Assembly (NCBI RefSeq): GCF_003482105.1
Contig: NZ_QULM01000001.1
Location: forward strand, 372,001-436,000
Reading direction: 5' to 3'
From: Coprococcus sp. OM04-5BH
GTDB taxonomy: Bacteria > Bacillota > Clostridia > Lachnospirales > Lachnospiraceae
Length of the DNA stretch: 64,000 nt
Program-made: the position numbers and the translations under genes
In this document: positions 6,181 to 24,965 of the stretch, piece by piece
Position numbering within the stretch: position 1 is the first letter of the stretch
How the letters are laid out: the number at the start of each line of letters is the position of its first letter
Notes under the pieces: generated by a model
What the model was told of the DNA's origin: nothing
The model's database searches: none
Seen by the model: the letters and a program-made list of their open reading frames with translations, nothing else

Positions 6181-6186
6181 AAGCAT

Positions 6187-6500
6187 GTTAAAAATAAACA
6201 TGATCAAAAACAATGACAGAGACAGTAGACAGCACATGAAAGCTTTAAGCGAGTCGGGGATGGTGGAAGCCCGGTGTAAGTAGTGGCTGATCGAATATCA
6301 CTCTGGAGTTGCAGACCGAAAGATATGATCTTATCAAGTAGGCTCTGTCGTAGTTCCGGCGTTAACGGAAACGTGTATGCATTGCAGGTGGTTAAGGGAT
6401 CATAGATATTGTGGTCGCACAGGCAATAAGTATAGTGGTAATAGGTGGTATAACGAATTTCAAGCCCTTTCGTCCTGATTACGACGGAAGGGCTTTTTAA
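6187..6500 (+). promoter_or_regulatory. T-box leader (tRNA-Ile sensing) with terminator
   Basis: A cis-acting leader that reads the charging state of tRNA-Ile and controls ileS by transcription termination. Stem I begins near the AGCGAGTCGGGG segment; the specifier loop GAATATCAC carries ATC (Ile) at 6297-6299. A T-box sequence AGGTGGTATAACG (6443-6455) presents UGGU, matching the ACCA end of tRNA-Ile. It is followed by the terminator stem AGCCCTTTCGTC (6463-6474) / GACGGAAGGGCT (6483-6494) and a T run. The T-box departs from the usual GGTGGNACCGCG. Confidence 0.92.
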
Positions 6501-6534
6501 ATTATAATTTTGAAAAAAATAAAATGAAAGGACG

Positions 6535-10525: not shown

Positions 10526-10792
10526 CGGGGGTTGCGTGAGAATCCTGTTTGGAGCATGAACTATGTAGGACGTGTGATAGGGGAGAATTTCAGTGGCAAT
10601 TTCTTGAAAGAGGTGCTTATGCAAGTTTCGGCAGAGTTGCCATTTCGTGGTCCAGAGATATATGCAAAAGGAGATTATCACTATCATTGCAAAATAGATG
10701 GCGAGTTTGTATGGTTTCAGGGATATGAAGAAATATTTTACATAGATGAAAAAATATATGAGTGTCATTTTCATGGAGGAGCTATTCGATAA
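10526..10792 (+). pseudogene. DUF5680-domain protein, C-terminal fragment
   Basis: Encodes the last 85 or so residues of a DUF5680-type protein, with the typical pieces NPVWSMNYVGRV, LPFRGPEIYAKGDYHY, WFQGYEEIFY and a final YECHFHGG. A TGA three codons upstream of the first homologous residues, and no plausible start with a ribosome site, show that the N-terminal part is missing. The stop overlaps the next fragment's ATG by one base. Confidence 0.7.
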
Positions 10793-11321: not shown

Positions 11322-11354
11322 TTTCCCTTAAAAAATGGAAATGTTTAAGGGAAA
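11322..11354. promoter_or_regulatory. TTTCCCTTAAA inverted pair downstream of fic
   Basis: TTTCCCTTAAA (11322-11332) and TTTAAGGGAAA (11344-11354) face each other 20 bases beyond the fic stop. The same element occurs four times upstream of fic. No T run follows, so it looks more like a binding site than a terminator. Confidence 0.5.
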
Positions 11355-11373
11355 TATAAAATACTTAATGGTA

Positions 11374-12420
11374 TTATTTCATTCTAAAATAGCAAGTGTT
11401 CTTTCCTGAGCCTTCACGTTTTAGTTCACCAGATGCGACTAATTTTCTTAGTGAGCCCTCTATAGAGCTGACGCTAAGCGAAGGGCAAAGCTCACGAATA
11501 TCCTGCTTTGTGAAGCGACCTATTTTGTGTAAGGTTGCTCGTCTGACTGTTTCGAGAGCTGGCAACTTTGTTTCAACAAGTTCAAAACGTTCTTCGAAAT
11601 CTTTGTATGCAGCAAGAACAGTACCAAGCAAATACTTGATAAATGGAACTGAGTCCTCTGTCCCTTCATGCCAGCCAATTTGTGCCTGACCAAGTGCGTC
11701 GTAATACAGGTCCTTGTTCTTGGCAATCTTAGCTTCCAATGAAATATACTTGCCAACATAAAAGCCATTTCTGTATAACAGAAGTGTTGTAAGCAAACGG
11801 CTCATTCGTCCATTTCCATCATTGAACGGATGGATGCAAAGAAAGTCATGAATGAAGATTGGAATTGCAATCAGGGGTTCAACTTCCATATTTCCAATGA
11901 CACGATTATATTCCTCACATATTCTATCTAAAGCCTGTGGAGTATCGTATGGAGCAAGTGGAGTGAACAGAGTTTCTACATGGCCATCTGGATAGGTGGC
12001 ACTAATATAGTTTTGTACACTTTTAGTTCTTCCGGCCATAGGATTATTCATGTGGCTATACAATATTTTGTGAAGCTGTAAAATATAATTCTGTGTGATA
12101 GGAATTGCATCAAAGCTTTCGTGAATAATATTAAGAACATCGCGATACCCTGCAATTTCCTGCTCATCACGGTTCTTTGGTGTTGTTTTTTCTTCTACAA
12201 TCTGCTTGATACGAGTGCTTGTTGTAACAATTCCCTCAATTGCGTTTGATGCCTCGGTGCTTTGTATTTTAGCAATCTCAACCAGTTTTTCTAATTCTTC
12301 AGGACGTTGTTTCAGGTACATTTCCTGTTTACCGGCCTCTTTATAAATTGCTGCAATTAAGCTAAGAACATCTGAATCCCACTTTTGCTTCTTGATTTCA
12401 GAGTAATTAAAAGTTCTCAT
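11374..12420 (-). CDS. Fic family protein with C-terminal winged helix
   Basis: Fic proteins transfer AMP or similar groups from nucleotides to target hydroxyls. About 348 residues. N-terminal helical region with EASNAIEGI, matching the inhibitory motif (S/T)XXXE(G/N) of class II Fic proteins, which blocks activity until relieved. The core carries HPFNDGNGRMSR (complete HPFX(D/E)GNGR with catalytic His). The C-terminal 60 residues resemble a winged-helix DNA-binding domain (SSIEGSLRKLVASGELKREG). ATG at 12420 is chosen for GGAGG 7 bases upstream; an in-frame GTG nine bases earlier abuts the ribosome site. The DNA-binding domain and the repeats in its promoter suggest autoregulation. Confidence 0.9.
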   Translation of the reverse strand: MRTFNYSEIKKQKWDSDVLSLIAAIYKEAGKQEMYLKQRPEELEKLVEIAKIQSTEASNAIEGIVTTSTRIKQIVEEKTTPKNRDEQEIAGYRDVLNIIHESFDAIPITQNYILQLHKILYSHMNNPMAGRTKSVQNYISATYPDGHVETLFTPLAPYDTPQALDRICEEYNRVIGNMEVEPLIAIPIFIHDFLCIHPFNDGNGRMSRLLTTLLLYRNGFYVGKYISLEAKIAKNKDLYYDALGQAQIGWHEGTEDSVPFIKYLLGTVLAAYKDFEERFELVETKLPALETVRRATLHKIGRFTKQDIRELCPSLSVSSIEGSLRKLVASGELKREGSGKNTCYFRMK

Positions 12421-12437
12421 TTCCTTCACCTCCGATT

Positions 12438-12503
12438 ATTTCCCTTAAATATTACCACAAAATAAGGGAAACGGCAACATATTAAGGGAATTTTCCCTTA
12501 ATA
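12438..12503. promoter_or_regulatory. Cluster of TTTCCCTTAA operators upstream of fic
   Basis: Four half-sites: TTTCCCTTAAA near 12439-12449, TAAGGGAAA near 12464-12472, and the perfect palindrome TTAAGGGAATTTTCCCTTAA at 12483-12502. They cover the region where the minus-strand fic promoter must lie. Confidence 0.55.
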
Positions 12504-12768: not shown

Positions 12769-12956
12769 TCATTTCATGTCCACTTCGCAGGAAGGTGGAA
12801 TTTTTACTTCTTCCAGTGCTTTCCCGTGAAGTTTATGGAGATAACGTAGTTCGTATCCCATATCAACAGCAATCTGCTCCCAAGTGATGAAGCAAAGGTA
12901 TCGTTCCTCCAAGAGGGTCCGGTATTCCGTATTTCCTACTTGTTTGATGACCTCTT
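12769..12956 (-). pseudogene. Phage DUF1492 protein, C-terminal fragment
   Basis: On the minus strand an open frame reads EVIKQVGNTEYRTLLEERYL, then TWEQIAVDMGYELRYLHKLH, ending in EVDMK and a stop at 12769-12771. This is the C-terminal half of DUF1492-type phage regulators (sigma-factor-like). It is cut at about 12953, exactly where the duplicated immunity-island sequence begins, marking a recombination junction. Confidence 0.6.
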
Positions 12957-13184
12957 ATGAACGAGAATCCTAAAATTTATGTGGTAAATGGCAGGGTTTT
13001 TAATGAAAAGTACGGCATTTCCAAATATGACTTACTGATGTCGGATGAAGAATGTCTGCTTTGTATTTTGCCTGACGAACTGAATCCTGAGGTTATGAGT
13101 TGCAAGGAAGTTGCATTAAGAGATTATGAGATTGGTGGGGGTCTGTTTTCTGAGTATGTAGAGAACTGTCCGGAGTTGATGTAG
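12957..13184 (+). pseudogene. Duplicated C-terminus of the island membrane protein
   Basis: 75 codons (IYVVNGRVFNEKYGISKYDL ...) nearly identical to the last 75 codons of the gene at 19020-19874, with only a few substitutions. The membrane-spanning N-terminal two thirds is absent. It begins at a recombination junction with a phage remnant and is followed, in the same order as the full copy, by the CbrC gene copy. Offset between the copies is exactly 6690 bases. Probably not functional. Confidence 0.8.
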
Positions 13185-13209
13185 TTGTGAAGATGAAGAG
13201 GATACAAAA

Positions 13210-13557
13210 ATAAATGATAATTCTTTGAAATTACCCAAATTTAAATATCATCCCAATGTTTACGATAAAGAAAAAGTTTTAGATGCAGTTCAGTTCGATA
13301 ATAATGTATGTCAGTGTTGTGGCAACAAAACAGATGTGTATGTGTCAACTATGTACTGCAGTGAAGAAGTGGATTGTATTTGCATGGAATGTGTGGCAAA
13401 TGGTAAGGCAGCAGAAAAGTATGATGGTGAATTTATCCAATACGCAGAGGAAATATCAGATGAGGAGAAAAGGACTGAATTGTTTAGGCGAACACCGGGA
13501 TATTGTTCTTGGCAAGGCGAATATTGGTTGGCCTGTTGCGATGACTATTGCGAGTAA
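13210..13557 (+). pseudogene. CbrC-family gene copy, start lost and 3' end cut
   Basis: Same sequence as the first two thirds of the intact CbrC-family gene at 19900-20430. The start codon ATG of the full copy is ATA here (13210-13212), and homology stops at the Glu codon at about 13554, followed at once by an unrelated sequence and a TAA stop. The Cys pairs CQCCGNK and CICMEC are still readable. Translation from an internal start is possible but unlikely to give a working protein. Confidence 0.8.
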
Positions 13558-13559
13558 GT

Positions 13560-13671
13560 GTACGGACGAGGATCTTGACCCGCATACAATGATCTTTTTG
13601 ACACGGTAAATGAACACTTTACAATCTCTAAGATTGCGGATTCATTTTCCTTGTTTATGGAAGGGCTATAT
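13560..13671 (+). pseudogene. SUKH-like immunity protein, C-terminal remnant
   Basis: A short frame reads DLFDTVNEHFTISKIADSFS and then LFMEGLYD, the usual closing segment of SMI1/KNR4 (SUKH) immunity proteins. Sequence just before it (DEDLDPHT) is in a different frame. There is no start. It is sandwiched between the truncated CbrC copy and a chimeric gene. Confidence 0.5.
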
Positions 13672-13864
13672 GATTCAACATACATATAATGTGCAAGCTT
13701 TTAATGATGGCAACAAAATAATTCAACCTGTCCTTTCGGATGAGTATGAGGCGCTGCTTGGCTGTCTTATTGAATATCTGGACGACATAGTTATGGGGGG
13801 TAAATCTATCAATTTGAATATTCATTATTCAGCACCCGATTGGGTGTGGGATAAGTTGTCATAG
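13670..13864 (+). pseudogene. Chimeric fragment joining two island genes
   Basis: 64 codons from ATG 13670. The first part (IQHTYNVQAFNDGNKIIQPV ... EALLGCLIEY) matches the start of the gene at 16699; the second part (YLDDIV.GGKSINLNIHYSA) matches the sequence at the end of the gene at 18322 and just beyond it. The switch falls near 13780. This is direct evidence for recombination between islands of homology. The copy is followed to about 13920 by sequence matching 19009-19070. Confidence 0.75.
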
Positions 13865-13968
13865 GTATATTGGAGTGGAAAGGAATTTAAGTATAGAATG
13901 AGATTCATAAAAAAGCATCCGTATTTATCGTATGGAGTATGAACAATTTGTAAAATGCTGCTTTTGTA

Positions 13969-13997
13969 TTGCTTTTGTCAGGACAAATGGATATAAT
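13969..13997 (+). promoter_or_regulatory. Toxin-antitoxin promoter with palindromic operator
   Basis: TTGCTT (13969-13974), 17-base spacer, TATAAT (13992-13997). The spacer contains the palindrome TTGTCAGGACAA (13975-13986), a good candidate site for the RelB-type antitoxin. Confidence 0.6.
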
Positions 13998-14030
13998 ATA
14001 GTTAGAAAAAACTCGAAAGGAGTGTTTACT

Positions 14031-14339
14031 ATGGCAACAAAATCAGCAAATTTATACGTACGCATAGAGCCTGATGTAAAAGAACAGGCAGAAGGAATCT
14101 TAGCAGCATTAGGAATTCCTGCATCCAATGCAATAAATATGTTTTACAAACAAATTATTCTTCAAAGAGGACTTCCTTTTGAAGTGAAAATGCCATCCGC
14201 TCGTCTTGTAGACGTTAGTGCATTATCAGAAGCACAGATGAATGCAGAACTAGAGAAAGGATATGCGGATATGCAGGCTGGTCGTACTAGATCAGCAAAA
14301 TCTGTTTTTGCTGATATCCGCAAGGATTACAGTTTATGA
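14031..14339 (+). CDS. RelB/DinJ family antitoxin
   Basis: 102 residues. N-terminal ribbon-helix-helix segment (SANLYVRIEPDVKEQAEGIL, then LGIPASNAINMFYKQIIL) matches RelB/DinJ antitoxins, which bind DNA and neutralise a RelE-type toxin. ATG 14031 follows GAAAGGAG; an upstream in-frame ATG at 13932 lies before the promoter and is rejected. The stop overlaps the toxin start (ATGA), so the two are translationally coupled. A palindrome in the promoter suggests autorepression. Confidence 0.9.
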   Translation: MATKSANLYVRIEPDVKEQAEGILAALGIPASNAINMFYKQIILQRGLPFEVKMPSARLVDVSALSEAQMNAELEKGYADMQAGRTRSAKSVFADIRKDYSL

Positions 14340-14668
14340 TTTATGATATCGAGATTTCAGATCAGGCCGAGATAGACCTTCGTGGAATTTTCGAATACAT
14401 TGCTTTTGAACTGCAGGCACCAGGAAATGCAAGTGGTCAGCTTGATAGGCTTGAAGCATGTATTATGGATCTTGATCATATGCCGAAGAGATATCGACAA
14501 TATGAATTGGAACCATGGAAAAGTCGAGGGCTACGCGTAGCGCCAGTAGACAATTATCTTATTCTATATATTCCAGATGATGATACACAAGTGGTTACGA
14601 TTATCCGTGTTATGTACGGTGGACGAGATGTGGATACGCAATTAAACAGATTAACAAAATCAAAATAA
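14336..14668 (+). CDS. RelE/ParE family toxin
   Basis: 110 residues, the expected size. The fold pattern of the RelE/ParE superfamily is visible: ISDQAEIDLRGIFEYIAFEL helices, then a beta segment with LRVAPVDNYLILYIPDDD and VVTIIRVMYGGRD at the C-terminus. Members are either ribosome-dependent mRNA interferases or gyrase poisons; which one applies is not decided by the sequence. Overlaps the antitoxin by 4 bases. A weak hairpin (AGCATCAATCA / TGGTTGGTGCT, 14674-14699) follows and may end the operon. The pair sits inside the immunity island and may stabilise it. Confidence 0.9.
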   Translation: MIYDIEISDQAEIDLRGIFEYIAFELQAPGNASGQLDRLEACIMDLDHMPKRYRQYELEPWKSRGLRVAPVDNYLILYIPDDDTQVVTIIRVMYGGRDVDTQLNRLTKSK

Positions 14669-14763
14669 TTTGAAAGCATCAATCAGAAATGGTTGGTGCT
14701 CTTTCATGCATGGAGAAATCTGGGCTTTTTTAATGCCCATTTTTACGGAAGGAGGTATCGACC

Positions 14764-14916
14764 GTGGCTAACAGAATCATGGGTATTACTGTCGAGATTG
14801 GCGGAGATACCACCAAATTACAGACTGCCCTAAAGGGAGTCAATGGACAAATTAAAAGTACGCAGCAACAGTTAAAGGATGTAGATAAGCCTAGATTATT
14901 CACGGCTCAGCCGTGA
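14764..14916 (+). pseudogene. Phage tail tape-measure protein, N-terminal fragment
   Basis: GTG 14764 after GGAGG opens a frame reading RIMGITVEIGGDTTKLQTAL and KGVNGQIKSTQQQLKDVDK, the standard beginning of Siphoviridae tape-measure proteins. Homology breaks after DVDK and the frame stops 8 codons later at the two hairpins at 14901-14933. A full protein would exceed 700 residues. This shows past prophage DNA in the island. Confidence 0.75.
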
Positions 14917-14933
14917 AAGTGGCTGAAAGCCAC
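14901..14933. repeat. Pair of adjacent hairpins at a junction
   Basis: CACGGCTCAGCCGTG (14901-14915) and GTGGCTGAAAGCCAC (14919-14933) are two perfect small inverted repeats side by side, exactly where the tape-measure homology ends. Such hairpins are seen at the ends of IS200/IS605-type elements, but no transposase is present. Confidence 0.5.
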
Positions 14934-14971
14934 ATAGTTACTGTATTTTAGCTGAATATTGCTTTTCACCT

Positions 14972-15254
14972 ATGTTTTGCTATGTGTCCACGAAGATTAC
15001 GGACGAAGGCTGGAAGTCGGATATATGGTCAGGGAAGAAGCTGAACGAGAGGAAGATAGTGGCTGGAGCTTTATGGCAGGTAATGAGGATGATGAGTTTA
15101 TAGAGGATTATAAAAATATTAAATTATTATCAATAGCAGAAATGTGCCAGATGGCTCCGGAGATTCAGGAGCATATTGATAAGCTGGTAGGAACAGCACT
15201 TATAAGGATTATACCTTTGATGAATTGAGAAAATTGCAGGTGAAAAAAGGTTAA
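14972..15254 (+). pseudogene. DUF2185 (Imm33-like) immunity gene with two frameshifts
   Basis: Three frames together give one DUF2185 protein: MFCYVSTKITDEGWK from ATG 14972, then after a one-base loss VGYMVREEAEREEDSGWSFM ... IDKLVGTA, then after a second shift near 15200 YKDYTFDELRKLQVKKG to the stop at 15252-15254. The DSGWSFMAGNEDDEF core is the family hallmark. DUF2185 proteins are predicted immunity proteins. Two independent shifts indicate decay, unless these are sequencing errors. Confidence 0.7.
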
Positions 15255-15260
15255 AGCAAC

Positions 15261-15464
15261 ATGAATAATAAAGACATAAAAATATGTGATGAATGTGGTA
15301 GTGAATTTTTAGTGGGTTCATCTAAAATGATGGGGTTATGCCCTGAATGTGCATCCGTTTTATATGGATATGAAAACTGCAAACATATTTTTCATCAAGG
15401 AAGATGTGTAAAGTGTTTGTGGAAGGGCAACAAAAGCGAATATGTTAAAAGGCTGGAGGGATGA
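15261..15464 (+). CDS. Small zinc-ribbon protein
   Basis: 67 residues with four Cys pairs or singles arranged as CDECG ... CPEC ... CKH ... CVKC, suggesting one or two zinc ribbons. The start lies 6 bases after the DUF2185 remnant; no clear ribosome site. Its TGA overlaps the ATG of an 11-codon frame (MKYEILYPDE), perhaps the head of a lost downstream immunity gene. Function unknown; could itself be a fragment. Confidence 0.5.
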   Translation: MNNKDIKICDECGSEFLVGSSKMMGLCPECASVLYGYENCKHIFHQGRCVKCLWKGNKSEYVKRLEG

Positions 15465-15609
15465 AATATGAAATTTTGTATCCCGATGAGTGATAAAAAT
15501 CATTTTCCTTGTTTGTGGATATGTTGTACCCTGCTGATTTAAAGTCTGGAAAATAAGAAACTTTCGCATTTAAGCTGTAGATTTTGCAGCAGAAAAGGAG
15601 GATTGAAAA

Positions 15610-16632
15610 ATGACACAGAAAGAAAAACTATTTTATTACTTGGACAGGATAAATAATAGCACCGAGCTTAAGGATGAAATATATTGGAAATGTGGATTGG
15701 AAATATGGAAACCTAACGAATTACAGGATGACTTGGAATCTCTAATGGAGGGTGGCTGTAAACAGAATTATGAACTTATTCCATTTGCCAGTGATGGTGA
15801 TGGTGGAGTATGTGTATTGGTGGATAATCAATATGTTTCCATGATTGATTCGGAAGGTGGAGCCGGATATATCGCAGCTTCTGTAGATGATTTTATAAAT
15901 ATACTATTATGGTACAAATATATTCCAATTACGAAAAAAGTATTTGATGGTTTTGAGGAGTTTATAGAAGATTACCAGAGAGATGAATACGGTTCGAATA
16001 CATCGGAGCTTATAAATGATTTTTTACAATCTGAACATCTTGATTTGGATAACAGAATGGTATATGAAAAATTCCTAAAAGGAGTCTCATTGACTCCTGC
16101 ATTCATCATAGAACCGATGGATGAAGAATATGAGATTTCAGAGAATTTGTTCGAATTCGATGAAGCAGAATTTAATGAAAAGATAAGATGTACAGGCTTT
16201 GCGGCTAATGAAGGAGATGTTGATATGGTTTTTGAAGATGCGTTCACTGATTTACAGTCAGAATTTGTTTCTCTGTGTATGGAATATACGGGCGGATGCG
16301 TTGATAAAATATATATCTATATTTATCAGGATGCATCACAGAAAATGTTCAATGCTATTTTTGTCAAAGGAGATAGGGTCATACCTGCCGGTAATTTTGC
16401 TGATGATGAAGCCTCTGATGAATTTTTATCAATTGGAACAAAAGATATTAGTAAGCTGGTTGAGTTGTGTGATATGTACCAACAAAAATGTCCGAATGAA
16501 TATAAGCTGGAGTTTGATGTTGCAACTCATAAATTTGATGCATCCTATCGTTATGATGACTATACCAAAAGTGGAATATCACCTGTGTCAGAATTGATGG
16601 ACTGGTATAGAAAAATTAAAGAAAGTATGTAG
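15610..16632 (+). CDS. Two-domain immunity-like protein (SUKH-like plus YezG-like)
   Basis: 340 residues. Residues 1-150 resemble a SMI1/KNR4 (SUKH) domain (YELIPFASDGDGGVCVLVDN, YIAASVDDFINILL). Residues about 195-340 resemble YezG/DUF600-type immunity proteins (VFEDAFTDLQSEFVSLCMEY ... FDVATHKFDASYRYDDYTKS). Such proteins bind and block nuclease-type toxins of contact-dependent systems. ATG 15610 follows AAGGAGG. The middle linker (FLKGVSLTPAFIIEPMDEEY) is duplicated at 20500 and the C-terminal domain has a stand-alone paralog at 21258. No cognate toxin is present in the window. Confidence 0.6.
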   Translation: MTQKEKLFYYLDRINNSTELKDEIYWKCGLEIWKPNELQDDLESLMEGGCKQNYELIPFASDGDGGVCVLVDNQYVSMIDSEGGAGYIAASVDDFINILLWYKYIPITKKVFDGFEEFIEDYQRDEYGSNTSELINDFLQSEHLDLDNRMVYEKFLKGVSLTPAFIIEPMDEEYEISENLFEFDEAEFNEKIRCTGFAANEGDVDMVFEDAFTDLQSEFVSLCMEYTGGCVDKIYIYIYQDASQKMFNAIFVKGDRVIPAGNFADDEASDEFLSIGTKDISKLVELCDMYQQKCPNEYKLEFDVATHKFDASYRYDDYTKSGISPVSELMDWYRKIKESM

Positions 16633-16698
16633 CACGTGACATTTTGAAGTTTATATATTGAGCCTTTGCCAAAGAAATATGATAGGAGAAAGAAGAAA

Positions 16699-17256
16699 TT
16701 GATTCAACATACATATGATGTGCAAACCTTTGATGACGGAAACAAAATAATTCGCCCTGCTCTTTCGAATGAGTATGAAGCACTGCTTGGCTGTCTTATT
16801 GATTTTCCGGATTTGATGGAAAGAAGTGTAGACATAGTGATTGACGGTGAGGCTGAAATATATAATACGGCTGGAAATGTTTTTTCTGCGGACATAGAAA
16901 AGGAAATTACCGTTATAACATGTTATTTGGTTGACGATTACGAGCCTCTTTGCGTAAGTACCGAAGATCTTAAGAAGCTTCTTTATGAATGGAATAATAT
17001 CCGGAGATTTAAAAAATCTCATAGTAAACTATATGATATTTTGCTGGCAGAGCTTGAGGCTGGAAATACAATACGTGAAACCTACAGAGGTCGTTTCAGT
17101 GATAGTGATGAAACAACATTTATTTTTCTAAATAAGACACTAAAGACGAAGGTTAGGACGGATATTCTGGGTGTAACTTATATGGAAGTAAATGACCCGC
17201 ATTATTGGAATGCAGAATATGATGACAAAGAGAATAGACTTTGCCTTGCCTGGTAA
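16699..17256 (+). CDS. Island protein of unknown function (immunity-like)
   Basis: 185 residues from TTG 16699, preferred over upstream starts because AGGAG lies 10 bases before it and the chimeric copy at 13670 has ATG at the same position. Acidic, no membrane segment. Contains ALSNEYEALLGCLIDF and a C-terminal PHYWNAEYDDKENRLCLAW that is duplicated as a loose fragment at 21143-21218. I do not recognise a family; the company it keeps and its acidity suggest an immunity protein. Confidence 0.55.
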   Translation: MIQHTYDVQTFDDGNKIIRPALSNEYEALLGCLIDFPDLMERSVDIVIDGEAEIYNTAGNVFSADIEKEITVITCYLVDDYEPLCVSTEDLKKLLYEWNNIRRFKKSHSKLYDILLAELEAGNTIRETYRGRFSDSDETTFIFLNKTLKTKVRTDILGVTYMEVNDPHYWNAEYDDKENRLCLAW

Positions 17257-17280
17257 GGAAATTAAGTAGGAGGAATGCGT

Positions 17281-18135
17281 ATGGATATGAATGGAATCTA
17301 TCAGAAAGATAATAAATTTGAGGGCGAGGAGAGCTTGTATTATGTCCTTGCTGGAAACGGTGGTTCTTCACGTTTGAGCAAGAATGAAAAGTATCATATT
17401 ATTACATGTTCTGCTGTTGCAATATATGATATAAATGCTGATTGTGTGGTAAAGAAGATAAAGATTATGACATGGCCTATATCAAATCAGGAGTATGAGG
17501 CACAGAATGAAAACAGCGAATATTTTAACAGATTTAAAGATGGTGTGATTTATAAGGTTTTGGGAAGATTACAGTATAGTACCTTTGGGGAACTTGCATT
17601 TTTGTATGTAAAAGAGGTATTAGAAGAAAATGTATCCGGAACAAAGCTTGATAAAAAGCAGGAAAAATATCTGGCACCGATTGTTTTAGAAGATGATGTT
17701 TTGGGGAAATTGGTGTTAGAGAAATCAGAAGGGCTGTTTGAAGGAACGTATCATTTTTTAGGTAATGATATTACGATTTATATTGAGGTAGAATGGAGTA
17801 GTAAAGCAACCTGGAAAAAGCCTTTGACTGTTGCAAGAGATTTTGTGGAGCATATTGTGTCAAGAGATGAAGCATTTAGAGAATATATTGCAGCTGATGA
17901 AGCATTGTATGACGCTGCTTTGGAGTGCTTGGAAGACTATGAAGATGAATGTGAAATTCATTTTTCTACACCGGAAGAATTTGCAAACGCATTAAAAGGA
18001 CGCATGAAATACATCTTTGTGAATCAAAATGGTTCCTATACTATAGGATATGATGATGGCTATGTATTTGGCGGACATGAGATTGATGTAGATGTGGATT
18101 CTAAGGGCAAAATGGTGTGTGCGGATATGAGATAG
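17281..18135 (+). CDS. DUF2262-like protein (immunity candidate)
   Basis: 284 residues, soluble and acidic. The second half (LGKLVLEKSEGLFEGTYHFL ... ITIYIEVEW ... DFVEHIVSRDEAFREYIA) resembles DUF2262 proteins, often found near polymorphic toxin loci. Start ATG 17281 is favoured over ATG 17275 because AGGAGG (17268-17273) is 7 bases upstream. The leader AAGTAGGAGGAATG is repeated before the gene at 20733, as if the ribosome site moved with a cassette. Confidence 0.55.
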   Translation: MDMNGIYQKDNKFEGEESLYYVLAGNGGSSRLSKNEKYHIITCSAVAIYDINADCVVKKIKIMTWPISNQEYEAQNENSEYFNRFKDGVIYKVLGRLQYSTFGELAFLYVKEVLEENVSGTKLDKKQEKYLAPIVLEDDVLGKLVLEKSEGLFEGTYHFLGNDITIYIEVEWSSKATWKKPLTVARDFVEHIVSRDEAFREYIAADEALYDAALECLEDYEDECEIHFSTPEEFANALKGRMKYIFVNQNGSYTIGYDDGYVFGGHEIDVDVDSKGKMVCADMR

Positions 18136-18321
18136 ATAACAGCCTTGGCAATCTGTACAACAATCGGCTTTAGAAAATAACTTGCACAGGAAATTCGCAA
18201 AAGTATAGATTGCTTTTTTGAAGCACAGAAATGTCCAAATGGTATTGGAAAGCCGTTTATTTGTGTAAGAATTGGTGAGTTTTTTTGAACAGAATAATGA
18301 TAGAAAGTAGTAAGTGAGATT
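18136..18321 (+). other. Gap with an unassigned open stretch
   Basis: No start-to-stop gene. A frame from about 18180 to 18288 reads AQEIRKSIDCFFEAQKCPNG and KPFICVRIGEFF before a stop; it may be the tail of another lost gene, but I do not recognise it. Confidence 0.3.
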
Positions 18322-19006
18322 ATGAACACAATTAACAAGAGTATAAAAGATGCCCTGTTTAGAGCCTATAACACAAGAAACAGAAACAACAAAAATCAGA
18401 AACGTTTTGATGTGATATTTGGAACAATATTTTTTTTGTGTCTCATTTTGACTATAGCTGCATTTGGCTTGATGGGAGCGAACGTAAAAGCAGGAGTTAT
18501 CATGCTCCTTGTAATTTTTTTATGCTTTGGAGCAGCTGTTACATATGCTTTGCTAAGGAAAAAACGTATTATGAAGCTGCTGTATTCGGTGCCTGTGGGA
18601 GCGGAAAATATAGAAAAGATAGATGTTAAACAGGTAGAGATTCTGAATCAACTGTACGAGGAATCTGCACTTACTATTGGAATGGAAGCTATTCCGGATG
18701 AAGAATTTTTCAATATTCTGTACAACTGGTTAATCGGCATGAATGCATTGCCGGAAGGCAAACTTAAACTGTATTACCTTACAGGAAAGCTGTGGAATCA
18801 GCGATTTGCCTGCAAAGTAAATGATGATACGCAGATTTTATGTATCGCTATGGGCGATCTGAATATCAATGCAGAAAATACGGAGCAGTTTTCGTATGAG
18901 CATATGGTGTTTGGAAGATATTTGGACGACATAGTTACAGGGGGTTAAATCTATCAATTTGAATATTCATTATTCAGCACCCGATTGGGTGTGGGATAAG
19001 TTGTAA
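18322..19006 (+). pseudogene. Two-helix membrane protein, frameshifted near C-terminus
   Basis: 208 codons to the first stop at 18948. Two membrane segments (VIFGTIFFLCLILTIAAFGL; VIMLLVIFLCFGAAVTYALL), then a cytoplasmic domain homologous to that of the gene at 19020 (YSVPVGAENIEKIDVKQVEI ... NIENAEN-type end). After YLDDIVTGG the frame ends, but removing one T restores KSINLNIHYSAPDWVWDKL to a stop at 19004-19006, exactly as read in the chimeric copy at 13790-13864. So the C-terminal 20 residues were lost by a one-base insertion; the shorter protein may still work. Confidence 0.6.
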
Positions 19007-19019
19007 TAGGTATATTGGA

Positions 19020-19874
19020 GTGGAAAGGGAATTTAAGTATAGAATGAAATTCATAAAAAAGCATCCGTATTTATTTTGGCAATACATTGGTTTTTTCATA
19101 TTGGCGGTTGATTGTCTGTATGTTTGGTTTAATTTGGAAAATGAGCAGGTAAGCTATGCATTTATTGTACTTTCGGCAATGCTTGCCTTTGCGATTATAA
19201 CTCTGTCGCCTTTTGTAATTAAATGCAGGAAAAAAATGAAAGACCCTGCAGAGATAGAAGAATCCTATCGGTACAAATACATCGAAGAATGGTATATACA
19301 TATATATGGCTCGGCAAAAGGTGTGGCTGTTATTATAACTATGATCGTTTTGTTTATTGGTGGTACGTGTGTCCTGACATACTTCGGTTTACCTTTTTTG
19401 GCATTTTTATTGTTTTATGTCGATGTCTGGATTTACTGTCTGTGGAAAAACCACGTAAAGCGCACATTTTACAAAGTACCAGATGGTGCAAAACGGTGTG
19501 AGCTTATTTATGTGAAGGATATAGCATTTCTTGATTTGCTCAATTCCCAGACTGCACTTTGCTACTTTTCAAAGCCAAGTGACGAGATGCTTGATTTTTT
19601 ATATAACCGATTTTATAGTGAAACATTAAATCAGAAGCGCTTGCTTATGAATGAGCATCTGAAAATTTATGTGGTAAATGGCAGGGTTTTTAATGAAAAG
19701 TACGGCATTTCCAAATATGACTTACCGATGTCGGATGAAGAATGTCTGCTTTGTATTCTGCCTGACGAACTGAACCCTGAGGTTATGAGTAGCAAGGAAG
19801 TTGCATTAAGAGATTATGAGATTGGTGGGGGGCTGTTTTCTGAGTATGTAGAGAACTGTCCGGAGTTGATGTAG
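19020..19874 (+). CDS. Island membrane protein, paralog of the 18322 gene
   Basis: 284 residues with about four membrane helices in the first 145 residues (YIGFFILAVDCLYVWF; FIVLSAMLAFAIITLSPFVI; VAVIITMIVLFIGGTCVLTY; FLLFYVDVWIYCLW) and a soluble C-terminal domain (KVPDGAKRCELIYVKDIAFL ... CILPDELNPEVMS). The paralog upstream has the same C-terminal domain after two helices. GTG 19020 is used; ATG 19044 is an alternative. Its last 75 codons are duplicated at 12957. Function unknown; membrane immunity to a pore-forming or cell-wall-active toxin is one possibility. Confidence 0.6.
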   Translation: MEREFKYRMKFIKKHPYLFWQYIGFFILAVDCLYVWFNLENEQVSYAFIVLSAMLAFAIITLSPFVIKCRKKMKDPAEIEESYRYKYIEEWYIHIYGSAKGVAVIITMIVLFIGGTCVLTYFGLPFLAFLLFYVDVWIYCLWKNHVKRTFYKVPDGAKRCELIYVKDIAFLDLLNSQTALCYFSKPSDEMLDFLYNRFYSETLNQKRLLMNEHLKIYVVNGRVFNEKYGISKYDLPMSDEECLLCILPDELNPEVMSSKEVALRDYEIGGGLFSEYVENCPELM

Positions 19875-19899
19875 TTGTGAAGATGAAGAGGATACAAAA

Positions 19900-20430
19900 A
19901 TGAATGATAATTCTTTGAAATTACCCAAATTTAAATATCATCCTAATGTTTACGATAAAGAAAAAGTTTTAGATGCAGTTCAGTTCGATAATAATGTATG
20001 CCAGTGTTGTGGCAACAAAACAGATGTGTATGTGTCAACTATGTACTGCAGTGGAGAAGTGGATTGTATTTGCATGGAATGTGTGGCAAATGGTAAGGCA
20101 GCAGAAAAGTATGATGGTGAATTTATCCAATACGCAGAGGAAATATCAGATGAGGAGAAAAGGACTGAATTGTTTAGGCGAACACCGGGATATTGTTCTT
20201 GGCAAGGCGAATATTGGTTGGCATGTTGCGATGACTATTGTGAGTATTTAGGTGATGTAGGATATGCGGAATTAAAAGAGATGAATTTAGTAAGTATTAT
20301 TGAAGAATACAAAAAAGTAGAGGGAATGGACTTTGATAATGAAATGTTAGAAAAGGGCGGTTCCCTGGCTGGATATTTGTTCAGATGTATTCATTGTGGA
20401 AAATTTAGATTGAATGTTGATTGTGATTAA
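19900..20430 (+). CDS. CbrC family (UPF0167) protein
   Basis: 176 residues. Typical CbrC layout: LPKFKYHPNVYDKEKVLDAV near the start, Cys motifs CQCCGNK and CICMEC, the segment RTPGYCSWQGEYWLACCDDY, and a final CIHCGKFRLNVDCD. In E. coli CbrC is linked to colicin E2 tolerance, and family members are frequent in toxin-immunity clusters. ATG 19900 lies 26 bases after the membrane gene. The 5' two thirds is duplicated at 13210 with the start codon lost, so this is the intact copy. Confidence 0.85.
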   Translation: MNDNSLKLPKFKYHPNVYDKEKVLDAVQFDNNVCQCCGNKTDVYVSTMYCSGEVDCICMECVANGKAAEKYDGEFIQYAEEISDEEKRTELFRRTPGYCSWQGEYWLACCDDYCEYLGDVGYAELKEMNLVSIIEEYKKVEGMDFDNEMLEKGGSLAGYLFRCIHCGKFRLNVDCD

Positions 20431-20477
20431 GGGAAGCAATGGAGTTAGGTAAGAAAGACAAAAAAGGGTGCGTGACT

Positions 20478-20663
20478 ATGCTTAGAATAAAAGATGAATT
20501 CCTAAAAGGGGTGTCATTGACTCCGGCATTCATCATAGAACCAACGGATGAAGAATATGAGGTTTCAGAGAATTTGTTCGGATTCGATGAAGCAGAATTT
20601 TATGAAAAGATAAAATTTACAAGTTTTGAGGATAGAATATCTGTAATTGATGTGTTAAAATAA
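20478..20663 (+). pseudogene. Fragment of the SUKH/YezG fusion linker
   Basis: From ATG 20478 the frame reads EFLKGVSLTPAFIIEPTDEE ... FGFDEAEFYEKIKF, closely matching the middle linker of the gene at 15610, and then ends in unrelated sequence (SFEDRISVIDVLK). Neither flanking domain is present, so it is a recombination leftover. An in-frame start at 20439 exists but adds nothing homologous. Confidence 0.65.
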
Positions 20664-20732
20664 GGGAAAATGAAATTTCCTTTATTCAGGTTATTAAAGC
20701 TTGGAAATGGAATTAAGTAGGAGGAATGTTTT

Positions 20733-21131
20733 ATGTCATACTTAATTGTAGCAGTTGTAGTAGTTATTTTTATTGCCGTGGTTTTTATAGTGGCAGGAAA
20801 AGACAGTAAAGAACGCATAGATATGGTTTCCAAATTAACAGAGGAGCAGAGAAATATTTTAATGTCAACAGAAGTAAATTTTGTTGGGAAAAATGCATGG
20901 GTACAAAAAGCAATGGTAGCGAAAATGAAGGATAAAGGAAATAAAATAGACATAAGGCTATTATGGTTTAATGAGGTACTGCAAAATAATGAATATAATA
21001 AAATTACAATGGCGGATGTAGCAATAACAAAATCAGAACAGGAAGAACATAACTTAAAGGAAGGCGATTTTGTAAAATTCTATTTTGCACCGGAAAAAAG
21101 TATAGGCAGGACAAAAATAATATGGGAGTAG
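20733..21131 (+). CDS. Single-pass membrane protein of unknown function
   Basis: 132 residues: a strong N-terminal membrane helix (YLIVAVVVVIFIAVVFIVAG) followed by a basic soluble domain (FVGKNAWVQKAMVAKMKDKG ... EGDFVKFYFAPEKSIGRTKI). ATG 20733 follows AGGAGG with 9-base spacing, in a leader (AATTAAGTAGGAGGAATG) also found before the DUF2262-like gene. No family recognised. Confidence 0.6.
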   Translation: MSYLIVAVVVVIFIAVVFIVAGKDSKERIDMVSKLTEEQRNILMSTEVNFVGKNAWVQKAMVAKMKDKGNKIDIRLLWFNEVLQNNEYNKITMADVAITKSEQEEHNLKEGDFVKFYFAPEKSIGRTKIIWE

Positions 21132-21142
21132 GCTTTCATTTA

Positions 21143-21218
21143 TACGAAAGTGAATGCTCCACATTATTGGAATACAGAATATGATGACAAAGGGAACAGA
21201 CTTTGTCTTGCTTGGTAA
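21143..21218 (+). pseudogene. Duplicated C-terminal tail of the 16699 gene
   Basis: Reads VNAPHYWNTEYDDKGNRLCL then AW and a stop, matching the last 22 residues of the 16699 product with a few changes. No start or upstream homology. Confidence 0.75.
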
Positions 21219-21257
21219 GGGAAAGCTGAAATTCTAAATTTGCTGAAGGGGTAAATT

Positions 21258-21671
21258 ATGATTTTTGAAGATGCATTTACAGAAAAACAATCAGAAATAA
21301 TATCAATGTTTTTAGAGGTTATAGGTGATAATGTAGATACAATATATGTTTTCGTCCAATCGGATGAATGGTCAGCAATGGAAACGTGTGCCTTCGGAGT
21401 AAAAGGCTCAATACTTGGTAATCTTGAAGCGGGTATATCGGATAAAGATATATTAGATATATTTGATGTGATAGAGGATGAAATTATACCTGAACTTGAA
21501 GATATATGTAAAGAATACGATATGCCTATGCCTCAAGAATTTAGGTATGTATATAATGTTGCTTCCGGTGCATTTGATTCAAATTATAGATATGGGGAAG
21601 AATTGAGTGCACTTGAAGATTATAATCCAGGAATAGAAGCCCAGAAGTGGATAGATTCGTTTAAAGTATGA
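21258..21671 (+). CDS. YezG-like immunity protein
   Basis: 137 residues, strongly acidic. Clear paralog of the C-terminal domain of the 15610 protein: MIFEDAFTEKQSEIISMFLE, VDTIYVFVQSDEWSAMETC and VYNVASGAFDSNYRYGEEL align along its length. YezG-type proteins neutralise LXG/Rhs-type nuclease toxins in Firmicutes. ATG 21258 follows GAAGGGG with 8-base spacing. Last intact gene of the island. Confidence 0.6.
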   Translation: MIFEDAFTEKQSEIISMFLEVIGDNVDTIYVFVQSDEWSAMETCAFGVKGSILGNLEAGISDKDILDIFDVIEDEIIPELEDICKEYDMPMPQEFRYVYNVASGAFDSNYRYGEELSALEDYNPGIEAQKWIDSFKV

Positions 21672-21777
21672 TTAAATAAGCACGCATTTATTTGAGGTTG
21701 ATAAATCGTGGAAAATTGAAAGGATACAGAGAAATAAGGTGGTTTGCCATAAATTGTGATTGTGGGGCAAGCCACCT

Positions 21778-21951
21778 TTCAAATTATTGCGAATCCGTAA
21801 TCTTTTCCACTTTAGACAATATGATCTTGGACACATTATGGAAAACATTATATACAATGATTTTCTGAGACGTGGATATAATGTCAATGTAGGGGTGTCG
21901 TATGAGCCATATCTGGCATTTGTCACAGGATACCTGGGAGAGATACCATGA
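21778..21951 (+). pseudogene. DUF4143-type ATPase, fragment
   Basis: A stretch without a proper start reads RQYDLGHIMENIIYNDFLRR and GYNVNVGV, the C-terminal hallmark of AAA ATPases with a DUF4143 domain (DIGHxxENxVYxELxRRGY). It then runs into unrelated residues and stops. The rest of a roughly 400-residue gene is absent. Confidence 0.65.
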
Positions 21952-22075: not shown

Positions 22076-22294
22076 TTATTTCTTATATGACTCGCCTATT
22101 ATTGTATTACGCGGATCCACCATGGCGTGGATTATGGTATTTCCCCTTTGCTGGAAGTCGTTTGCCTCACCGATATCTCCACCTAAGACAGAGGACTTCA
22201 CTATCTTTTTGATTATTATATTGCCGGCAACGCAGATGCCGCATAGTATACCGCCTATAAGCCCTATGATCAGAGCGGGTACTGATATTACCAT
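22076..22294 (-). CDS. Small membrane protein after the zinc-ribbon gene
   Basis: 72 residues with one glycine-rich membrane segment (VPALIIGLIGGILCGICVAG, about residues 5-24) and a basic cytoplasmic tail. The ATG at 22294 overlaps the end of the upstream gene by 7 bases, so the two are co-translated and probably act together. GGAAAGG stands upstream. No family recognised. Confidence 0.7.
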   Translation of the reverse strand: MVISVPALIIGLIGGILCGICVAGNIIIKKIVKSSVLGGDIGEANDFQQRGNTIIHAMVDPRNTIIGESYKK

Positions 22295-24006
22295 ATGCCC
22301 CTTCCTTTCCGGGATATCTGTTTTAACCCTGAAGATTTCATTGTGGTACGGCTGATGTTGTACCGTTTCATATTATTTCTCATACTGGCAAATGCAGCCG
22401 AGCCGGTGGCGAACAGGAACAGCCATGGAGTGATATTGTTCAGAAGCCCGCATATAAGGCCAAGCACCGCATAAGCAAATACAACGCCTATTCCTATAGG
22501 TATAGCAGATCTTGCAACCTTGGCAGTGTCGTTAGGCAGGTGTGCCACCACCTTGCCGGTCTGTCCGTTTACCAGGATATTTATTATGTTATCGTTACAT
22601 CTGAAGGTCATGAACCACACCGGAAGCAGAGCGTATTCCAAGTCTGCCACATCGCAGGTGGTCTCCTCGCTCTCAACAGTTACAGGCTGGAACTCTGCAC
22701 AGGAATCATATATGTATTCGTCAATAAATTCCTTTGCCCTTTTCTTTGATATATTAATGGCTTCCCCTGCAGGCACATCATAGACATTTGCATAGAAGCC
22801 TGTGAGATACTTAGGGGTGAAAGGTATGGCTCTGTCGGTGTCCCAGGGCTCAAGACGTCTGGACACGTCGTCATTTAACTGCCTTGATGAGTCTGCGGTT
22901 ATCCTTGCATATATGCATTCGATATCACGGAGCAGCTTCACAGGTATAGTGGTGGTTTCGCTGGAAGATGAGGATGATAGCATCTTTTCCTGTCTTATCT
23001 GCTTAGTTCCGTTTAATTTCATTGCTTTTCTTATATCTATGGTAGGCAGCCAGTACGGGATGTACACACCTATCAGGTTATCAAGGCGGTAGTTATCTAT
23101 CTCCCTGCTGACAAATTTACTGTTTTGTATGGCAGCCTTTATATTCGTCATGGCTTCCTCTTTGGTAACGGAGAAGGGAATGACCAGATCCGGACAGAAC
23201 TCGTTGGATACCTTGTCAAATACTATGGACGGCTGACCACAGTAGGCACATATGGTGGAAGCGTCTCTTCCTGTCAGCATAAGCTTCGCACCGCAGGCGG
23301 CACACCTGTAGATATTGAAGTTCAGATATTTAAGCTTAAAGTCGTTGTCAGGAACCTCGTCGGGGGTGTCGAAGTACAATTCATCCAGAGCCTTTTCGCT
23401 CTCCTTGATGTAGCGTTCCACACGCATATGACCTCTGGCTTCCCGTTTCCTCTGCTCCAGCTCGTCAGGGGTAGGACCGGTTTCCTCCTTAAGGGTAAGC
23501 TCAGACTGATCGTCTGCCTCATCATCAGAATTTCCGGCGTTGTTTCCAGCCATACCGGAGCTTACGTCAGCTTCCAGTGAAGGGGCAAATACTATCTCTT
23601 CCGTTATCTGTCCGCCGTGCTCCCTTAAGTTGTAGCCAAAGGCTTCGTAGGTATCGTCCTGGAAGAAATTAACCTCCGGTTCTTTGGAATTGTCATGGTC
23701 ATCATGTTCATAATCGTGTTCCTCAGAGCTGCCATTCTCAGAGCTGATATCTTCATCGTCATCCTCATTCAGCTTTAACTTAAAAGCGGGTCTGACACCC
23801 TTATCTGTATCATCTTTTTTTCCGTCAGAGGAGAAATAATCCTCGGGAACATCTTCGTTCATGTCCGCAAGAGAATTGGCATTTGCATAGTAGTAGTCCG
23901 TGTCGCCCTCTTCTGCATATATAGAGCCGCAGTTTGGACACTCGGCCTTTCTTGTGGCGGGATTAAGTCTTACCGCACCGCCGCAGTTTTTACATCGCAA
24001 TATCAT
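22288..24006 (-). CDS. Zinc-ribbon membrane protein (TFIIB-type zinc ribbon)
   Basis: 572 residues. N-terminal zinc ribbon ILRCKNCGGAVRLNPATRKA with CPNCG, a very acidic linker (about residues 40-190), a second ribbon (YRCAACGAKLMLT ... CAYCGQPSIVF), a domain common to this uncharacterised family (LVIPFSVTKEEAMTNIKAAI ... GVYIPYWL), then two membrane segments near the C-terminus. Start at 24006 is preferred (GGAGGGACGAAT before ATG); the frame extends 8 codons further. The leader contains TTAAATGGGCTGATGTTCAA, shared with other genes here. Divergent from the Hsp70 operon; role unknown. Confidence 0.75.
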   Translation of the reverse strand: MILRCKNCGGAVRLNPATRKAECPNCGSIYAEEGDTDYYYANANSLADMNEDVPEDYFSSDGKKDDTDKGVRPAFKLKLNEDDDEDISSENGSSEEHDYEHDDHDNSKEPEVNFFQDDTYEAFGYNLREHGGQITEEIVFAPSLEADVSSGMAGNNAGNSDDEADDQSELTLKEETGPTPDELEQRKREARGHMRVERYIKESEKALDELYFDTPDEVPDNDFKLKYLNFNIYRCAACGAKLMLTGRDASTICAYCGQPSIVFDKVSNEFCPDLVIPFSVTKEEAMTNIKAAIQNSKFVSREIDNYRLDNLIGVYIPYWLPTIDIRKAMKLNGTKQIRQEKMLSSSSSSETTTIPVKLLRDIECIYARITADSSRQLNDDVSRRLEPWDTDRAIPFTPKYLTGFYANVYDVPAGEAINISKKRAKEFIDEYIYDSCAEFQPVTVESEETTCDVADLEYALLPVWFMTFRCNDNIINILVNGQTGKVVAHLPNDTAKVARSAIPIGIGVVFAYAVLGLICGLLNNITPWLFLFATGSAAFASMRNNMKRYNISRTTMKSSGLKQISRKGRGIW

Positions 24007-24024
24007 ATTCGTCCCTCCCCCATT

Positions 24025-24044
24025 GAACATCAGCCCATTTAAAA
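24025..24044 (-). promoter_or_regulatory. Shared leader motif, copy A
   Basis: On the minus strand TTAAATGGGCTGATGTTCAA lies 18 bases before the start codon of the zinc-ribbon gene. The same 20 bases sit at the same distance before the cytidylate-kinase-like gene (50396-50415). Confidence 0.6.
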
Positions 24045-24053
24045 TTTGCCTTT

Positions 24054-24965
24054 CTGGTAACGCCCCCTCCCATTATGGGTAACGCCCCCTCGTTTACACT
24101 TGGCGGCAAGTCGATTGTGCCATTCAAATATGCGTTTTCAACGCATGGGCACAATCTCTGGGTAACGCCCCCTCGTTTACACTCGGCGGCAAGTCGATTG
24201 TGCCATTCAAATATGCGTTTTCAACGCATGGGCACAATCTCTGGGTAACGCCCCCTCGTTTACACTCGGCGGCAAGTCGATTGTGCCATTCAAATATGCG
24301 TTTTCAACGCATGGGCACAATCTCTGGGTAACGCCCCCTCGTTTACACTCGGCGGCAAGTCGATTGTGCCATTCAAATATGCGTTTTCAACGCATGGGCA
24401 CAATCTCTGGGTAACGCCCCCTCGTTTACACTCGGCGGCAAGTCGATTGTGCCATTCAAATATGCGTTTTCAACGCATGGGCACAATCTCTGGGTAACGC
24501 CCCCTCGTTTACACTCGGCGGCAAGTCGATTGTGCCATTCAAATATGCGTTTTCAACGCATGGGCACAATCTCTGGGTAACGCCCCCTCGTTTACACTCG
24601 GCGGCAAGTCGATTGTGCCATTCAAATATGCGTTTTCAACGCATGGGCACAATCTCTGGGTAACGCCCCCTCGTTTACACTCGGCGGCAAGTCGATTGTG
24701 CCATTCAAATATGCGTTTTCAACGCATGGGCACAATCTCTGGGTAACGCCCCCTCGTTTACACTCGGCGGCAAGTCGATTGTGCCATTCAAATATGCGTT
24801 TTCAACGCATGGGCACAATCTCTGGGTAACGCCCCCTCGTTTACACTCGGCGGCAAGTCGATTGTGCCATTTAAATATGCGTTTTCAACGCATGGGCACA
24901 ATCTCTCGGCGGCATTTCGTCAGCACCATTCTAAATGTGTCTTCGACACTTGGTGCTTCCTCTGA
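24054..24965. repeat. Array of ten 83-bp hairpin repeats
   Basis: Units begin at 24077, 24160, 24243, 24326, 24409, 24492, 24575, 24658, 24741 and 24824, exactly 83 bases apart and almost identical (first unit TTGGCGGC for TCGGCGGC; last unit CATTTAAATATG for CATTCAAATATG). Each carries a compound inverted repeat: GATTGTGCC with GGCACAATC enclosing ATGCGTT with AACGCAT around a TTC loop. A partial unit precedes (24054-24076). A diverged unit with the same fold follows (about 24918-24965, GCACCA ... GTGTC TTC GACAC ... TGGTGC). No spacers, so not CRISPR; no ORF of note. Confidence 0.95.

What the first reader, a model, noticed from the sequence alone, without database searches (positions are those of the whole stretch)
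12950..21700. Scrambled island of immunity-like genes with duplicated and chimeric pieces
About nine kilobases carry at least eight small acidic or membrane genes of immunity type (CbrC, DUF2185, SUKH-like/YezG-like fusion, YezG-like, DUF2262-like and unknowns). Six segments are duplicated: 12957-13556 repeats 19647-20246 at an exact 6690-base offset; 13678-13780 matches 16703-16805; 13780-13920 matches 18918-19070; 16072-16195 matches 20500-20620; 17180-17256 matches 21143-21218; and the AGGAGGAATG leader is reused. This fits an orphan immunity archive that gains and reshuffles cassettes, with no toxin in view.
Basis: partly seen in the sequence, partly recalled or inferred. Interest (0 to 1): 0.8.

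Follow-up and report, generated by a model that had tools for sequence, protein, structure and literature searches.

The report
Decayed tandem array of immunity genes
A bacterium of a gut-dwelling family carries a worn, repeated row of genes that probably protect it from the protein poisons of neighbouring bacteria; such 'immunity stockpiles' are already known, and this one mainly gives a close look at how they wear down and how two protective genes become joined into one.

The parts
12954..13556 (+). Left remnant: 3' end of membrane gene 2 plus 5' two-thirds of a CbrC/UPF0167 gene, cut at both ends (repeat e); the CbrC start codon is lost
   Evidence: 97.5% identical to 19644-20246; PF03691 1e-35 for 13225-13557; codon comparison
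13557..13670 (+). Tail of a SUKH-type gene (remnant)
   Evidence: 13591-13680 read in frame is 44% identical over 27 aa to a SUKH-type protein of L110, E 8e-6 for that single comparison
13671..13782 (+). 5' part of the unknown immunity-like gene (repeat b), joined to the 3' end of membrane gene 1
   Evidence: 85.7% to 16700-16811
13774..13928 (+). 3' end of membrane gene 1, intergenic, 5' start of membrane gene 2 (repeat d), followed by the toxin-antitoxin pair
   Evidence: 95.5% to 18918-19074
13932..14668 (+). Type II toxin-antitoxin pair: RelB/DinJ antitoxin (13932-14339) and ParE/RelE-type toxin (14336-14668), inside the array
   Evidence: TIGR02384 3.4e-18; PF05016 1.3e-15
14764..14892 (+). 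Phage tape-measure fragment (N-terminus only)
   Evidence: PHROG 5755 5.4e-16; 84 bp at 14890-14973 are 90.5% identical to phage record MT835606
14959..15228 (+). Imm33 (DUF2185) immunity gene
   Evidence: PF09951 7.5e-19
15610..16632 (+). Fusion: SUKH-type domain (residues 1 to about 193) + linker that looks like a translated leader (194-206) + EsaG-like domain (from codon ATG at 16225)
   Evidence: SMI1_KNR4 in 6 of 6 members of A2, best 6.1e-6, window alone 0.0074; C-terminal part 30-34% identical to 21258-21671; leader alignment; positions
16666..17256 (+). Unknown acidic gene of the unit, 196 aa (contains repeats b and c)
   Evidence: No Pfam hit; 0 of 299 family genomes; net charge -9
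17275..18135 (+). DUF7021 + DUF2262 gene; immunity role doubtful
   Evidence: PF10020 1.6e-26, PF22886 1.1e-6; relatives outside arrays
18322..18948 (+). Membrane gene 1, distant homologue (25%) of membrane gene 2
   Evidence: Alignment A7; two TM-like stretches
19020..19874 (+). Membrane gene 2
   Evidence: Three TM-like stretches; 27 relatives at 61-100% in the protein search, 1 of 397 family genomes
19900..20430 (+). Intact CbrC/UPF0167 gene
   Evidence: PF03691 9.8e-51
20497..20634 (+). 3' end of the SUKH part (repeat a), remnant
   Evidence: 89.9% to 16070-16207
20733..21131 (+). Small membrane-anchored unknown gene behind the repeated AGGAGGAATG leader
   Evidence: No Pfam family above cut-off; leader; one TM-like stretch
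21140..21223 (+). 3' end of the unknown gene (repeat c), remnant
   Evidence: 85.7% to 17178-17261
21258..21671 (+). Stand-alone EsaG-fold immunity gene

Best explanation
This is a heterogeneous polyimmunity locus: a co-oriented row of immunity genes without their own polymorphic toxins, in a Lachnospiraceae chromosome, between ileS and glgP. Its products most likely bind and block nuclease-type effector toxins delivered by other bacteria: EsaG-fold (Imm36/DUF600) proteins against EsaD/NucA-type nucleases, CbrC-type against colicin-like/LHH nucleases, Imm33 and SUKH against other toxins. Structurally it is the decayed remnant of up to four partial tandem copies of a unit CbrC - SUKH - unknown - membrane 1 - membrane 2, one copy still largely intact (15610-20430). 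Recombination at shared gene ends and leaders duplicated, deleted and exchanged members, and once joined a SUKH gene in frame to an EsaG gene through the latter's leader. Shown: repeats, families, EsaG fold, toxin adjacency in some relatives. Inferred: neutralising function, tandem-unit history, recombination mechanism.
For: Repeats far above chance. EsaG fold; Zhang et al. list this family as Imm36 = DUF600, BH3703-like fold, mainly paired with Tox-NucA, found in heterogeneous polyimmunity loci (PMC3482391 table row). LXG + Endonuclea_NS_2 toxin directly upstream of an EsaG-like gene in L119 (and in L120, near-identical by reading), and an Endonuclea_NS_2 tail beside one in L109. UPF0167 directly downstream of an LHH toxin tail, and an EsaG-like gene about 240 bp before a PT-HINT/WHH toxin gene, in L110. 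Imm33 and EsaG-like genes in tandem in L108. SUKH profile in 6 of 6 members of A2. All array genes on + strand, gaps of 18-186 bp between genes from 15610 to 20430. AT-rich: GC 0.34-0.40 over 13-22 kb against 0.45 at 7-9 kb. Precedents: polyimmunity loci and proteins (PMC3482391 section 39); recombination between esaG and tipC paralogues at conserved blocks (PMC9484751).
Against: By my reading of the ORFs around them, only 4 of 11 EsaG-like loci had a polymorphic toxin near (two of the four, L119 and L120, are near-identical), and 0 of 3 SUKH-like loci, one of which lies at a contig end; a second EsaG-like hit in L110 was not read. Pfam gives no DUF600 match for 10 of 10 EsaG-like proteins. 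The unknown and membrane genes have no typed relative. DUF2262 sits outside arrays in relatives. Repeat divergences are unequal, so one tandem duplication cannot explain them. No strain comparison and no functional test.
Confidence: 0.8

Rival explanations
1. A true cassette archive: individual immunity genes and fragments are imported one by one from other strains and inserted in any order, with no tandem-unit ancestry.
For: Unequal divergence of repeat pairs, e vs b Fisher 1.9e-6. The left membrane fragment shares two marker positions (NENP, SC) with P0042, a partial relative covering residues 102-277 of membrane gene 2 (126 member sequences), rather than with the right copy. Rows at least 94% identical to array proteins but with a different sequence at one end: 5 of 9, 5 of 15 and 4 of 6 in three protein searches.
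Against: Two of five repeats keep gene-gene junctions, and all fit the unit order. Of those 14 odd-ended clusters 12 have a single member sequence, all 14 a single contig, so assembly chimeras are possible; and 3 of the 14 (P0044, P0054, P0062) end in frame-shifted array DNA, not foreign DNA.
Confidence: 0.3
2. A degrading remnant without current function: an old toxin-immunity or phage-borne region that is decaying by duplication, deletion and phage/TA insertion.
For: Truncated copies at 12954-13928 and 20497-21223; phage tape-measure and phage regulator fragments; CbrC start codon lost in the left copy.
Against: Intact members are found near-identical and open many times: clusters of 331, 299 and 365 member sequences for the fusion, membrane gene 2 and the EsaG gene (the contig column shows only 1, 3 and 1, so independence is not known).
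Confidence: 0.15
3. An operon with a different shared function (for example envelope or stress proteins) that merely resembles immunity genes.
For: Two membrane genes, an unknown and DUF2262 have no immunity evidence.
Against: EsaG fold, Imm33, CbrC and SUKH in one co-oriented row, with some relatives beside toxins.
Confidence: 0.06

Closest known systems
Heterogeneous polyimmunity loci and polyimmunity proteins (Zhang et al. 2012, PMC3482391)
   Same: Row of unrelated immunity genes in one orientation with short gaps and no polymorphic toxin; Imm33, SUKH and Imm36 (DUF600) are all listed there, as is a multi-immunity-domain protein class that combines such domains
   Different: Repeats fit decayed tandem copies of one multi-gene unit; a fused protein lies inside an extended locus, two things that paper thought might not occur in the same bacteria; a type II TA pair interrupts it
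Tandem esaG / tipC arrays of Staphylococcus and Streptococcus (Garrett et al. 2022, PMC9484751)
   Same: EsaG-fold immunity genes; conserved blocks at gene ends and intergenic parts; copy-number change by homologous recombination proposed there
   Different: Those are arrays of one family; here the unit is heterogeneous, and I recognised no T7SS gene in the window (reading)
[quoted passage not shown]
   Same: Co-oriented short orphan immunity genes, some SUKH
   Different: No tyrosine recombinase found among the ORFs scanned, other phylum, aimed at T6SS effectors there
S. aureus EsaG (PDB 8guo, 8gup)
   Different: 14-18% identity; toxin partner unknown here

Membership tests
[quoted passage not shown]
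   Imm33, SUKH-type + EsaG-like fusion, CbrC/UPF0167, EsaG fold, plus remnants
Heterogeneous polyimmunity locus | Not interrupted by polymorphic toxin genes or cassettes | tested here: met
   No LXG, PT-HINT or other polymorphic-toxin domain above cut-off among the array ORFs scanned; caveat: a RelB-ParE type II pair lies inside
Heterogeneous polyimmunity locus | Same orientation and short intergenic distances | tested here: met
   All + strand; gaps 33, 18, 186, 71 and 25 bp from 15610 to 20430
Heterogeneous polyimmunity locus | Content differs between strains | tested here: inconclusive
   Protein variants with other partners, but most are single sequences and may be assembly chimeras; no strain genomes reached
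rAID | Predicted tyrosine recombinase next to the array | tested here: not met
   None among the ORFs Pfam-scanned within 9.9-24 kb; none by my reading of the 42 ORFs of 180 aa or more in the window
rAID | Conserved intergenic sequence motifs | tested here: inconclusive
   One 20-bp leader twice; TAAGGRAA 18 times in the window against 6.5 expected, four at stop codons of array genes or remnants but six around the Fic gene
EsaG/YezG (DUF600, Imm36) immunity | EsaG / BH3703-like fold | tested here: met
EsaG/YezG (DUF600, Imm36) immunity | Gene next to an LXG/EsaD-type nuclease toxin (in relatives) | tested here: met
   L119 (LXG 2.5e-23 and Endonuclea_NS_2 1.2e-30) and L109 (4.8e-22) by profile, L120 by reading; not seen in 7 of 11 loci; none in the window itself
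EsaG/YezG (DUF600, Imm36) immunity | Neutralises an EsaD-type nuclease | not testable with these tools
   Needs a co-expression or competition assay
EsaG/YezG (DUF600, Imm36) immunity | Recognised by a DUF600 profile of Pfam (not itself a defining trait) | tested here: inconclusive
   None of 10 members matched one in single-sequence scans; I did not check that the profile is in this copy
SUKH superfamily | SMI1_KNR4-type domain | tested here: met
   6 of 6 members of A2 (window and five relatives), best 6.1e-6; window sequence alone 0.0074, under the cut-off
CbrC (colicin E2 tolerance equivalog) | Score above the NCBIfam equivalog cut-off | tested here: not met
   131.8 bits against a cut-off of 300; it is a UPF0167 (PF03691) protein, not the equivalog

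The most novel reading that the evidence does not exclude
Polyimmunity proteins arise here by recombination in the ribosome-binding leader of a downstream immunity gene. The 15610-16632 fusion reads in frame through a former leader (linker CTGFAANEGDVDM, DNA with GGAG 8 nt before ATG 16225), so the cell may make both a SUKH-EsaG fusion and free EsaG from an internal start. The same joint is used with other upstream partners (P0008 SUFU-type, P0009 unknown) and with another downstream end (P0006).
Probability: 0.25. Interest if true: 0.6.

Novelty: new member of a known kind. Interest (0 to 1): 0.4.

Why it matters
It documents an EsaG-type orphan immunity array in a Lachnospiraceae lineage; interbacterial warfare in this family is, in my judgement, less studied than in Bacteroidales (no call). 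It offers a readable record of how such arrays grow and decay, and a concrete test of how separate immunity genes become fused proteins.

Tried and rejected
Viral, plasmid and phage sources: the fusion and CbrC proteins gave no confirmed relative in viral contigs, and the 20-bp leader no exact match there. Array DNA 15610-21671 had no match in plasmids, the EsaG protein none. Phages (megablast of 12900-21700) gave one 84-bp match beside the tape-measure fragment.

Species: the window's genome is not held. The nearest ileS was 81% at protein level among the 80 loci kept of 593 or more matches, a capped list; 79% at DNA level among 98 relatives of that genome; and 75% or less over more than 1 kb in a genus of 37, 34 of them matched. 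So no strain comparison.

Insertion hot spot: ileS-glgP is under 400 bp in 58 of 65 relatives with both genes read, and 1.7-9.2 kb in 7. The other 15 of 80 loci were not scored: in 5 the contig ends within 2.7 kb, in 10 there is no glgP within 9.6-10 kb. By my reading none of the 7 inserts is an immunity array. Not supported as an immunity hot spot.

Anti-phage defence: no PADLOC match for 10 array proteins. Sequence searches of solved structures with A1 and A2 gave nothing credible. The fusion model failed (pLDDT 41), so the two-domain structure is untested. Alignment A4 misplaced the EsaG proteins and was not used. P0008 is absent from the table although one search lists it at 98% over 43%.

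Full report
WHAT IS THERE. The window is DNA of a Lachnospiraceae bacterium, judged by its ileS relatives; the species was not found. The array lies between ileS (6535-9714) and glgP (29546-31990). In 58 of 65 relatives where both genes were read these are less than 400 bp apart; here they are 19.8 kb apart (15 further loci could not be scored, 10 of them with no glgP within 9.6-10 kb). The array is AT-rich, and its genes are all on the + strand.

REPEATS. A self-comparison gives five dispersed direct repeats: e 12954-13556/19644-20246 (97.5%), d 13774-13928/18918-19074 (95.5%), a 16070-16207/20497-20634 (89.9%), b 13671-13782/16700-16811 (85.7%), c 17178-17261/21140-21223 (85.7%). They score 98.7-1021 bits; 200 shuffles reached 34.6 at most. 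Direct repeats also occur elsewhere in this window: block 1-8751 has some of up to 317 bp, and an 83-bp tandem array lies at 24 kb.

WHAT THE REPEATS MEAN. In gene terms, the left part reads: 3' end of membrane gene 2 and start of CbrC (e); tail of a SUKH gene; 5' part of the unknown gene (b); 3' end of membrane gene 1 and start of membrane gene 2 (d). The middle part reads SUKH-EsaG, unknown, DUF2262, membrane 1, membrane 2, CbrC, all open. The right part reads SUKH 3' end (a), a new small gene, the unknown gene's 3' end (c), EsaG. All three follow one cyclic order, CbrC - SUKH - unknown - membrane 1 - membrane 2. I therefore read the array as up to four partial tandem copies rather than a scramble. 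This is an inference. The left triple would fit by chance in 3 of 6 orders; the stronger point is that d and e preserve gene-gene junctions. The copies are not from one event: pair e differs at 15 of 603 sites and pair b at 16 of 112 (Fisher 1.9e-6). Also, the left membrane fragment shares two marker positions with P0042, a partial relative from other samples, not with the right copy, so exchange between strains or gene conversion has probably also acted.

THE FUSION. 15610-16632 joins the SUKH-type part to an EsaG-like part. The joint encodes CTGFAANEGDVDM (residues 194-206). Its DNA aligns, with gaps, to the leader of the free EsaG gene and contains GGAG 8 nt before the ATG at 16225. The whole fusion recurs in public data (clusters of 331 and 50 member sequences), so it is not an error of this assembly. 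Others share the joint with different neighbours: P0008 (SUFU-type head, 2.5e-4 and under the cut-off), P0009 (unknown head) and P0006 (same head, another tail after the ATG; 67 members, 9 contigs, one of 213 kb). P0008 and P0009 are single sequences and could be assembly chimeras. Multi-domain 'polyimmunity proteins' are described by Zhang et al.; both SUKH and Imm36 are in their list of commonly combined domains (section 39), and Imm36 is noted as fused to SuFu and Imm5. A SUKH-Imm36 fusion is therefore not a new class; what may be new is the way the joint arose.

INTRUDERS. A RelB/DinJ-ParE pair (13932-14668), a tape-measure fragment (14764-14892) and, on the minus strand left of the array, a phage regulator fragment (12772-12951) show that mobile DNA has entered the locus. 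No recombinase was found among the ORFs scanned.

PLACE AMONG KNOWN SYSTEMS. The tested features of a heterogeneous polyimmunity locus are met, except strain variation, which stays open. The recombinase that marks rAID was not found. The mechanism proposed for esaG and tipC arrays, recombination at conserved blocks within genes and at gene ends and intergenic parts (PMC9484751: abstract, passages and Discussion read), fits the fact that each of the five repeats here includes a gene end, a gene start or a gene junction. For PMC12247911 I read the abstract and two sections; for PMC3482391 passages and section 39.

LIMITS. No function was tested, no strain genome of the species was reached, and variant proteins were not verified on reads. 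Allele statements rest on protein sequences returned by the searches.

Noticed in passing
window 24076-24906: Ten tandem copies (99% alike) of an 83-bp unit; on the minus strand the array matches Rfam GA-cis RNA (RF02987) five times, just upstream of the zinc-ribbon gene 22288-24030. A ten-fold tandem of a described RNA motif looks unusual.
   Followed up: partly
window 11323-12500: A Fic gene (11374-12429, minus) is bracketed by TAAGGGAA sites in both orientations at 11323-11353 and 12440-12500, possibly operator sites.
   Followed up: no
window 12772-12951 and 14764-14973: Phage debris on both sides of the left remnants: a transcriptional-regulator fragment (PHROG 36, 5e-9) and a tape-measure N-terminus, the latter followed by 84 bp similar to phage record MT835606.
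   Followed up: partly
window 1-8751: Direct repeats of up to 317 bp (89% alike) outside the array; not examined, possibly the repetitive coding sequence near 5180-6115.
   Followed up: no
window 10532-10789: DUF5680 gene with a TTG start (2.6e-29) between ileS and the Fic gene.
   Followed up: no
window 21760-21951: Short frame right of the array that reads like the end of an AAA-ATPase/DUF4143 protein (my reading; no Pfam match).
   Followed up: no
L110 (G326:C1:779000-798000): Dense polymorphic-toxin locus of a related species with PT-HINT/WHH and PT-HINT/LHH toxin genes, several SUKH-type genes, EsaG-like and CbrC-like genes and repeated fragments; a good living comparison for the window's array.
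   Followed up: partly
L112, L113, L114, L115, L116: EsaG-like genes in a different, conserved neighbourhood (two lipoprotein-like genes upstream in all five; a membrane gene and an ankyrin-like gene downstream in L113-L115), with no toxin recognised, by my reading.
   Followed up: no
P0007, P0030, P0065: Array protein ends joined to Lon-type protease, relaxase and trigger-factor sequence in single contigs; either large rearrangements or assembly chimeras.
   Followed up: no
P0044 (public protein, contig of 194 kb): Its odd head is frame-shifted array DNA: the end of membrane gene 1 runs into the middle of membrane gene 2, which looks like an internal deletion in another strain.
   Followed up: partly
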